A DNA stretch of 42,915 nucleotides from Sulfurimonas sp. (GTDB lineage Bacteria; Campylobacterota; Campylobacteria; Campylobacterales; Sulfurimonadaceae). The notes beneath the pieces were generated by a model that saw only the letters and a program-made list of their open reading frames with translations, was not told where the DNA came from and did not search any database. Of the stretch, positions 1-23,028 are shown in pieces. The stretch is from contig JALUXP010000099.1 of NCBI GenBank assembly GCA_027013295.1, forward strand, positions 1 to 42,915, in the 5' to 3' direction. Positions within the stretch are counted from its first letter, which is position 1. Each line of letters starts with the position of its first letter. A program made the translations under genes and the position numbers.

Positions 1-124
1 AGTAAATAGCCCTATTGCGTCGTTAGATTTTATTGAATTAGCTACGGCTAGTCCTTCAAAAATCTGCCTAGCACTAGAGCTATTTACTTATTGCTGAAGT
101 TGGGGTTATTTATGGAGAAGCACT
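1..124 (-). mobile_element. Partial copy of the 265-bp inverted-repeat element (MITE-like), cut by the window edge
   Basis: These 124 bases are the exact reverse complement of 22759-22882, with no mismatch found by eye. They contain one internal stem-loop (arms with TAAATAGC and GCTATTTA) and one complete terminal inverted repeat ending in GAAGCACT at 124, followed by TA. The other half lies outside the window. No coding capacity is visible. The copy ends 15 bp before the cbpA start codon, so the ribosome binding site AAGGAT is the only cbpA leader sequence left beside it. Confidence 0.8.
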
Positions 125-139
125 TAAGAAGGATAGATA

Positions 140-21581: not shown

Positions 21582-22799
21582 ATGATAAAAATAGTAAAAC
21601 TTAGTTTAGTAACGGCAATAACTTTAGCTTCAACGGTATATGCATCTTCATCAGGGAAAGATATTCCATCTATCAGAGAAAAAACAGAAGCTATTAAAGC
21701 ACCATTAACTAAAAAGTCCAATGTAGTTAATAGTCTTAAGAGTATGTTTGAAGAAGCAAAGGGAAGTGGAAATATCCGTTCAATGTATTCAGGATACAAT
21801 AACGACAATGCAAAAAACACTTATGCAACAGCAATTGGCGGTCAGCTTAAATACAAACTAGCAAAATATAAAGGCTTCAATGCTGGTGTTGCTTTTACAA
21901 CTGCAAATGATGTGAATTTTGCAACTGGAGATAAAGATGATGGAAAAAGAAACGATGCTCTTGCAAGTACAAAAGGTTCTTACACAGAAGCAACTGAGGC
22001 TTACATAAACTATGAATTTCAAGGATTAAATCTCCGTGTAGGTCGTCAACTTATAGATACTCCTTTAGCCGATAGCGATGATATTAGAGTGACTCCAGAT
22101 ACATTTGAAGCATACATAGCAACTTATGAAACAGATGGTTTTTTTCTTATGGCGGGTCATCTCAACCAATGGCAAGGCTACGATGCAGGTTTAGATGACC
22201 ATTGGGTAAAAACTGGTAAAGATGGTGTAAATTTTGGTGGAGTTACTTATGCTAATGATTTTGTGAAGACAAGTGCATGGTACTACAATATTACAGGTTC
22301 GGATAATGGTAACAATGCTATTTATATTGATGCAATAGGAAATTATACTTTTAGTGATGTAGAACTTCATGCAGGAGTACAATATCTCAATGAAAGTGAA
22401 GTTGATAACAGTGGCGTTAAAGCAAGTATCTATGGTGCTTTGGCAGAAGTGGCAACGCTCTATACAAATATGGACAATATGATTCTTGATAATATTACAG
22501 AGGATAGAGATGCACAAACAATAGTTTCTGGAATCTCTTATGAACTTGGTGCTACCACTCTCTTATATGCTTATGGAGATTTTCAAGGAGACGCAAATAG
22601 TGCAGGTGTTAAAGCACATATAGCAGAACAAAATATAGCTGCTAAATACTCTTTTAGTGATGATTTATCAGTAAATGCTATCTATATCATCGATGATAAT
22701 AAAGATGATACAACAAGTAGATGTTTTAATGATAAAAACTTGATGGTTTTTGTTTATAAGTGCTTCTCCATAAATAACCCCAACTTCAGCAATAAGTAA
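21582..22799 (+). CDS. OprD-family outer-membrane porin with its C-terminus altered by an inserted element
   Basis: Beta-barrel channel for small solutes. The signal peptide (VKLSLVTAITLASTVYA) is followed by OprD-type motifs: SGNIRSMYSGY, TAIGGQLKYKLAKYKGFNAGVAFTT, LRVGRQLIDTPLADSDDIRVTP and GHLNQWQGYDAG. Residues 1-391 look native. After NLMVFVY the frame runs into the element and ends with 14 foreign residues (KCFSINNPNFSNK and stop). Removing the element and one TA restores a frame ending VYITFAG and stop, which carries the last strand and terminal aromatic signal. The current product lacks that BamA recognition end and may fold poorly, so the gene may be on the way to a pseudogene. Start: ATG without strong ribosome binding site. 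Confidence 0.85.
   Translation: MIKIVKLSLVTAITLASTVYASSSGKDIPSIREKTEAIKAPLTKKSNVVNSLKSMFEEAKGSGNIRSMYSGYNNDNAKNTYATAIGGQLKYKLAKYKGFNAGVAFTTANDVNFATGDKDDGKRNDALASTKGSYTEATEAYINYEFQGLNLRVGRQLIDTPLADSDDIRVTPDTFEAYIATYETDGFFLMAGHLNQWQGYDAGLDDHWVKTGKDGVNFGGVTYANDFVKTSAWYYNITGSDNGNNAIYIDAIGNYTFSDVELHAGVQYLNESEVDNSGVKASIYGALAEVATLYTNMDNMILDNITEDRDAQTIVSGISYELGATTLLYAYGDFQGDANSAGVKAHIAEQNIAAKYSFSDDLSVNAIYIIDDNKDDTTSRCFNDKNLMVFVYKCFSINNPNFSNK
22754..22789 (+). repeat. Left terminal inverted repeat (36 bp including flanking TTATAA)
   Basis: Exact reverse complement of 22993-23028. The element proper probably begins at 22759 (AGTGCTTCTCC), with TA at 22757-22758 as target duplication. Confidence 0.85.
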
Positions 22800-22887
22800 A
22801 TAGCTCTAGTGCTAGGCAGATTTTTGAAGGACTAGCCGTAGCTAATTCAATAAAATCTAACGACGCAATAGGGCTATTTACTTATTG
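22790..22887. repeat. Internal stem-loop 1 of the element
   Basis: Arms 22790-22807 (CAATAAGTAAATAGCTCT) and 22870-22887 pair at 17 of 18 positions and enclose 62 bases. The loop holds a smaller hairpin around GTAGC/GCTA-type arms. The stem also occurs in the copy at 1-124. Confidence 0.75.
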
Positions 22888-22895
22888 CCCGAAGG

Positions 22896-22993
22896 GAGAT
22901 TTAAAAAGAGGGCTACTGCTTCGTTAAAAGGCATTGAAGCTACTAGTAGCTCCTGCAACCTTTCGCCTTGCATTAGCCCTCTTTTTAAACCTC
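22896..22993. repeat. Internal stem-loop 2 of the element
   Basis: Arms 22896-22914 and 22975-22993 pair at 18 of 19 positions (core TTAAAAAGAGGGCT with AGCCCTCTTTTTAA). The 60-base loop contains the perfect palindrome AGCTACTAGTAGCT. Confidence 0.75.
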
Positions 22994-23028
22994 TGAAGTT
23001 GGGGTTATTTATGGAGAAGCACTTATAA
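22993..23028 (-). repeat. Right terminal inverted repeat (36 bp including flanking TTATAA)
   Basis: Exact reverse complement of 22754-22789. The element proper probably ends at 23023, with TA at 23024-23025. The remaining spacer to 23110 holds the old porin end and nothing else recognisable. Confidence 0.85.

What the first reader, a model, noticed from the sequence alone, without database searches (positions are those of the whole stretch)
22759..23023. Undescribed-looking MITE with nested hairpins
265 bp, long perfect terminal repeats, TA on both sides, and two strong internal stem-loops fill almost the whole element. A second copy at 1-124 is identical over the shared 124 bp, which implies recent movement or gene conversion. 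The very strong folding in both strands may also give a stable RNA or act as a terminator.
Basis: partly seen in the sequence, partly recalled or inferred. Interest (0 to 1): 0.65.

Follow-up and report, generated by a model that had tools for sequence, protein, structure and literature searches.

The report
Hitchhiking cross-shaped transposon in Sulfurimonas
This is one copy of a small gene-less jumping element, spread through sulfur-oxidising relatives of Campylobacter, that keeps the same cross-shaped fold while its letters change and seems to borrow the moving enzymes of several different insertion sequences; it matters because the fold, rather than the ends, is what stays constant.

Summary
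In detail: 265 bp (22759-23023), 31-bp perfect terminal repeats, TA on each side, two large internal hairpins (fold z = -15.6). The copy at 1-126 is identical, but position 1 is a contig end; eleven contig ends of this genome stop inside the element, so it is a recent multi-copy burst.
It is MITE-like, but not ordinary. The same layout, mostly 260-274 bp (arm, ~98-nt hairpin, CCC-NNN-GGG mini-hairpin, second hairpin in opposite orientation, arm), has hairpin-model matches in 41 of 298 sampled genomes of the phylum. Stem sequences differ, but pairing is kept (33 of 39 pairs change on both sides).
The ends differ by subfamily and so does the target duplication: TA (window type), 3-bp TWA, or 4 bp. 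Three end types match the ends of IS5-family (NF033581) insertion sequences, so IS5-type transposases are the likely helpers. No helper was found for the window's own end type, and no IS630 transposase was found in this genome. Why the fold is conserved is not shown; my best guess is a role in transposition.

The parts
22759..23023 (.). The element, 265 bp without the flanking TA
   Evidence: full copies in this and other genomes
22757..22758 (.). Left TA of the target duplication (TA also at 23024-23025)
   Evidence: TA type supported by empty sites of related copies; no empty site was found for this copy itself
22759..22789 (+). Left arm (terminal inverted repeat, 31 bp perfect)
22790..22889 (+). 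Hairpin SL1, core motif read on + strand
22888..22896 (.). Central mini-hairpin CCCGAAGGG
   Evidence: the CCC-NNN-GGG plan in relatives
22897..22993 (-). Hairpin SL2, same core motif read on - strand
22993..23023 (-). Right arm, exact reverse complement of the left
1..126 (-). Second copy, cut by the contig start; ends 14 nt before the ORF start at 140
21582..22799 (+). Porin-like ORF whose last codons are replaced by element sequence
   Evidence: relatives end in SYNF or SYSF at this place

Best explanation
The element is a non-autonomous DNA transposon. Its outer arms act as transposase-recognised ends, and the enzyme is supplied in trans by IS5-family (NF033581-type) insertion sequences whose ends the arms resemble. 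The inside is an old conserved module: two hairpins in opposite orientation around a mini-hairpin, so that either strand folds into a cross. Different subfamilies carry the same module between different ends and show different target duplications (2, 3 or 4 bp). Shown: mobility, target duplications, matching ends with IS5-family elements for three end types, conserved fold. Inferred: that the helper of the window's TAAGTGC end type is also IS5-like, and that the fold is kept because hairpins formed from the 5' strand of each half help the two ends to meet, or help the element to persist.
For: Multi-copy burst in this genome and in complete genome G346 (20 copies, 97.7-100% identical). Exact target duplications: 4 bp in 21 of 27 GGGCAC-end copies, 3 bp in 10 of 12 ATACC-end copies, TA in 29 of 36 TAAGT-end copies. 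Filled/empty pair L211/L191 with TTAA duplicated; TA empty sites for L061, L157 and L062. Ends shared with NF033581 insertion sequences: GGGCACCTCTAAAAACCC, TTGAACCCTCTGA, TGAGACCAC-type. Fold: 33 of 39 pairs with change on both sides, 335 such cells against 96 in shuffles. Wobble bias in the upper stem: G.T 64 to A.C 6 in SL1 and 64 to 4 in SL2, in opposite strand orientations.
Against: No insertion sequence with the window's TAAGTGC ends was found. This genome holds only two partial, dissimilar DDE_Tnp_1 genes, and complete genome G346, in mid-burst, has no DDE_Tnp_1 match at all. The hairpin model finds nothing in 24 loci searched for it, most of them holding such insertion sequences, so the module did not come from those copies. 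The L076 empty site is one base off a clean TA duplication. No movement was observed; a role of the fold in transposition is inference, and long palindromes can stay perfect through template-switch correction alone.
Confidence: 0.62

Rival explanations
1. Ordinary MITE of a resident IS630/Tc1-type element: TA target, ends shared with a local transposon, interior without meaning.
For: TA duplication for this end type; long terminal repeats.
Against: IS630 transposase PF13358 has 0 matches in this genome and matches in only 4 of 34 genomes, most of which carry the element without it. Other subfamilies with the same interior duplicate 3 or 4 bp and share ends with IS5-family elements. The interior covaries over many genera.
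Confidence: 0.1
2. Structured RNA or regulatory leader kept for the host: transcripts from either side fold, are processed (for example by RNase III) or regulate the next gene, and mobility is secondary.
For: Covariation and G.T preference in the upper stem fit RNA as well as single-stranded DNA. 70 of 73 copies lie between ORFs, often within 60 bp of a start. At nadD two species carry the element at the same place, with 10 differences in about 270 columns (counted by eye) while flanks are 83% and 73% identical.
Against: Dyad symmetry with the wobble preference on opposite strands of the two halves; recent bursts with target duplications; different elements at nearby sites in orthologous regions suggest repeated insertion; no Rfam match. 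The nadD pair may be independent insertions or transfer.
Confidence: 0.15
3. The covariation is a by-product: arms and stems are kept perfect by template-switch correction of palindromes, the layout is merely inherited, and there is no selection on the fold.
For: In arms and lower stems G.T and A.C mismatches are equally rare (10 to 14; arms 64 to 48), as correction on either strand would give.
Against: The G.T over A.C excess in the upper stem, near-constant hairpin length (98-101 nt in 56 hairpins) and conserved internal-loop letters are not explained by correction.
Confidence: 0.1
4. REPIN-like element moved by a Y1 (RAYT, IS200-type) transposase that recognises the hairpins.
For: Two inverted hairpins with strand-specific wobble resemble the REPIN layout (the REPIN layout is recalled, and PMC3116915 was seen only in a search listing).
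Against: Y1_Tnp PF01797 has 0 matches here; 8 of 18 carrier genomes, this one included, have none. Target duplications are not expected of Y1 enzymes (recalled).
Confidence: 0.03

Closest known systems
TA-flanked bacterial MITE-like elements: Correia/NEMIS, ERIC, RUP (PMC2229807, passages)
   Same: Short, gene-less, intergenic, multi-copy, inverted repeats, TA at the ends for the window type, stable folding
   Different: Here three duplication lengths occur with one shared interior; RUP is tied to IS630-Spn1, while IS630 is absent here; order-wide covarying cross-shaped interior
CIR repeats of Caulobacter and Brucella (PMC2229807, passages)
   Same: Two arms of inverted repeats joined by a linker, TA at the ends, phylogenetically conserved structure
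   Different: About 110 bp, GANTC motif in a loop, other phylum; no sequence comparison was made here
IS5-family insertion sequences, NF033581 type (for example L427, L430, L435)
   Same: Identical or near-identical terminal repeats for three end types; 4-bp flanking repeat at L427, L430, L437 and the L413 relic
   Different: They carry a transposase gene and no such hairpins; none with TAAGTGC ends was found
REPINs and RAYT
   Same: Two inverted hairpins, no gene of their own (recalled)
   Different: Longer, has arms and target duplications; no Y1 gene in this genome

Membership tests
MITE (non-autonomous miniature transposon) | short, no gene of its own, terminal inverted repeats | tested here: met
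   265 bp, 31-bp arms; no ORF of 100 aa starts inside
MITE (non-autonomous miniature transposon) | target-site duplication | tested here: met
   Flank repeats and empty sites for related copies; not for the window copy itself
MITE (non-autonomous miniature transposon) | ends shared with an autonomous element | tested here: inconclusive
   Met for three other end types; no partner for TAAGTGC ends
MITE of IS630/Tc1 type | TA target | tested here: met
   Window end type only
MITE of IS630/Tc1 type | IS630-type transposase in the genome | tested here: not met
   PF13358, 0 matches in G000; the draft is 99.35% complete but fragmented
MITE of IS5 family | end sequence of an NF033581-type insertion sequence | tested here: inconclusive
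   GGGCAC, TTGAAC and TGAGACCAC end types yes; TAAGT, ATACC and TTGCC end types not found
REPIN/RAYT | Y1 transposase in the genome | tested here: not met
   PF01797, 0 matches in G000
REPIN/RAYT | GTAG tag at the hairpin foot | not tested
   Tag known from PMC3733652 passages; no systematic check made
Integron attC site | paired R'' and R' boxes at the stem base | not tested
   Only compared by eye with a recalled consensus
Known RNA family (Rfam 15) | match at the curated threshold | tested here: not met
   0 matches over the window; only sub-threshold matches for this element and for three further loci

The most novel reading that the evidence does not exclude
A transposable chassis defined by its DNA fold rather than its ends: an order-wide lineage of gene-less elements that keeps a two-hairpin cross, with wobble tolerated on the 5' strand of each half, while repeatedly adopting the ends, and so the enzymes and target duplications, of different transposases; the fold itself takes part in transposition.
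Probability: 0.4. Interest if true: 0.82.

Novelty: new variant of a known kind. Interest (0 to 1): 0.62.

Why it matters
Bacterial MITEs are usually classed by their ends, and their interiors are taken as filler. Here the interior is the conserved part across a bacterial order, while the ends follow different helper transposases. That offers a natural test of whether DNA hairpins inside a transposon help it move, and a marker of helper switching. It also accounts for repeat-induced contig breaks and altered gene ends in these genomes, such as the porin-like ORF here.

Tried and rejected
IS630 helper and Y1 helper: no matches in this genome. Resident DDE_Tnp_1 helper: only two partial, dissimilar transposases here. 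A longer autonomous version with the same hairpins: none seen. In the listed model matches, hairpins come as opposite-strand pairs about 5 nt apart, apart from hairpins cut by contig ends, partners that are not listed, and one same-strand pair in G287. In complete genome G346 I saw no arm pair at IS-like spacing among the listed matches (up to 3 mismatches). Helper gene beside the elements: no recurrent neighbour family among 546 ORFs of 80 loci except regulator paralogues. Hairpins inside IS5-type elements: no R1 match in 24 loci. Viruses and plasmids: the window element has no match in plasmids or phages; the core pattern has 0 matches in viral contigs; one Sulfurovum plasmid has a 71% match to a G346 copy. 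Terminator role: few convergent positions. Caveats: the alignment is fitted to the model, so its pair counts lean towards it; the element sets contain some duplicates, 17 of 103 elements were not classified; one 213-bp deletion variant (L076) was folded but left out of the half-element alignment.

Full report
OBSERVATION. The element at 22759-23023 is real: 31-bp perfect arms, TA on each side, two internal hairpins, a fold 15.6 standard deviations below shuffles, and 0 chance arm matches in 100 shuffled windows. The window is contig C99 of a 2.06-Mb draft genome in 134 contigs. The 'copy at 1-124' is the exact reverse complement of 22757-22882 and stops at contig base 1. In this genome I count two complete copies (C99, C120) and eleven contig ends inside the element (starts of C120, C99, C35, C82 and C106; ends of C63, C32, C127, C128, C133 and C101). 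There are also internal deletions, some at a shared CCTCT string, and about ten solitary arms of roughly 13-40 nt with a precise outer end. That is what an amplified long palindrome, later deleted piecemeal, would leave (inference).

A SHARED ARCHITECTURE. One element in the same genome (L029, C23) has unrelated arms and stems but the same plan. BLAST with the window element matched 17 of 59 other genomes. A hairpin model (R1, from 30 hairpins) matched 19 of 20 chosen genomes, 18 of them chosen because BLAST had matched, and 41 of 298 phylum genomes (own included) in 17 of 58 genera, with stricter filters that lose weak hits. Of 82 core matches in those 80 loci, 63 lie in elements found by my arm search, 260-274 bp in all but three (294-319). 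The other 19 are near contig ends, decayed, or half elements; I looked at eight of them. The plan is: arm about 33 bp, hairpin of about 98 nt, a CCC-NNN-GGG mini-hairpin, a hairpin in the opposite orientation, arm. Contig L117 (Sulfurimonas sp. SAG-AH-194-I05, 31313 bp) has the length of G035:C26, a genome of the window's genus, so the host is most likely Sulfurimonas in the wide sense (inference).

THE FOLD IS CONSERVED, THE LETTERS ARE NOT. On 30 hairpins 93.8% of cells form standard pairs (shuffled 63.7%), 33 of 39 pairs change on both sides, and 335 cells do so, against 96 in shuffles and at most 98 when slid. On 40 further hairpins, fitted to the model, 39 of 39 pairs change on both sides. 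Conserved letters sit in an internal loop (CAAGGC on one side, AACGMAG on the other) and near the tip. Mismatches are informative. In pairs 1-13 from the base, G.T and A.C are both rare and about equal (10 and 14). In the upper stem G.T outnumbers A.C by 64 to 6 in SL1 and 64 to 4 in SL2, each read in the orientation of its core motif. Because SL1 and SL2 point in opposite directions, this means the 5' strand of each half. A transcript from one side alone would not predict this for both hairpins; a DNA structure used symmetrically, or transcripts from both sides, would. Palindrome correction alone could keep arms and lower stems perfect, but not the upper-stem bias or the conserved loops (inference).

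MOBILITY AND TARGET DUPLICATION. In complete genome G346, 20 copies from 20 places are 97.7-100% identical to the reference copy once oriented. Of these, 18 are flanked by an exact 4-bp repeat directly outside GGGCACC...GGTGCCC, one by a 6-bp repeat and one by none. Over 103 elements grouped by ends: GGGCAC, 4 bp in 21 of 27; ATACC, 3-bp TWA in 10 of 12; TAAGT, TA in 29 of 36 (4 bp in 4); TTGA(G/A), AT in 5 of 8; TTGCC, AT in 3 of 3; 17 not classified. TA and AT are self-complementary, so for those types flanks alone cannot separate a duplication from part of the end. Empty sites can: a 2-nt excess at the junction in 6 of 11 relatives for L061 and 8 of 9 for L157, and the pair L062/L139. L076 against a 97% identical empty site is one base off. 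Other spanning pairs were too diverged to read. The clearest case is L211 against L191 (flanks 93-96% identical): a GGGCAC-type copy has entered next to another element, with TTAA duplicated.

HELPERS. GGGCACCTCTAAAAACCC is the end of IS5-family insertion sequences. L427, a contig of the viral collection, has a 1296-bp insertion sequence with CTCT on both sides and a 396-aa protein matching NF033581 at 3e-81. L413/L453 is a relic in a genome of the window's genus with TATA on both sides. Further copies with ends of this type, up to 4 mismatches, are L430, L432, L433, L434 and L437. TTGAACCCTCTGA ends bound NF033581 genes in L431, L435 and L436 and match the arms of L114, L155 and L172. TGAGACCAC-type ends occur in L438 and L444 (both ends) and L446 (one end seen) and match the arms of L337. 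NF033581 matches occur in 36 of 135 genomes of the genus at E 1e-6, 11 above the curated cut-off; I examined ends only in the loci returned. For the window's TAAGTGC ends no such element was found, so its helper is inferred. IS630 and Y1 transposases have no match in this genome, and complete genome G346 has no DDE_Tnp_1 match. Helpers may be transient or lost (inference).

SURROUNDINGS. Of 73 elements with enough flank, 70 lie between ORFs of at least 90 aa (37 co-directional, 28 divergent, 5 convergent), 1 inside an ORF, 2 undetermined; the ORF caller is crude and a few loci are duplicated. The window copy sits in the last codons of a porin-like ORF: two relatives end in SYNF and SYSF, here the frame runs on into the element. 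No recurrent neighbour gene points to a helper. At nadD two species carry an element at the same place that is more alike than its flanks: hot spot, transfer or constraint cannot be separated.

COMPARISON. It works like a MITE mobilised in trans. As to membership, it meets the short, gene-less, inverted-repeat and duplication criteria; the shared-helper criterion is met for three end types and open for the window's. From PMC2229807 (passages), comparable small elements with TA ends are Correia/NEMIS, ERIC, RUP and CIR, and movement by transposases then lacked experimental support. [quoted passage not shown] PMC3733652 (passages) reports GTAG and CGTC palindromes of 20-40 bp, in Sulfurovum among others. 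I saw no report of this element in searches, which cover open-access papers only.

VERDICT. A new variant of a known kind with an unusual feature: the interior fold outlives the ends. Why it does so is open; my preferred reading, a role of hairpins in transposition, is inference.

Noticed in passing
L031 (C124), L032 (C114), L038 (C43) of G000: Another short hairpin repeat family, CTGACCTTACGCACC...GGTGCGTAAGGTCAG, lies beside fragments of this element.
   Followed up: no
L031 and L032: C124:1-500 and the end of C114 are nearly identical, gene included: a duplication or assembly redundancy.
   Followed up: no
G287 C1:2011402-2011604 (L344): Two hairpin-model matches lie side by side on the same strand, unlike the usual opposite orientation.
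   Followed up: partly
L110 and L121: Elements with an extra 30-50 bp inside one hairpin, so that loop can take insertions.
   Followed up: partly
L080 and L130: Different elements sit in the same region upstream of an mnmG-like gene in two species, within about 30 bp: an insertion hot spot.
   Followed up: partly
L428, end of a viral-collection contig: A tiny element with GGGCACCTC ends and no hairpin module, in a contig of unknown host.
   Followed up: no
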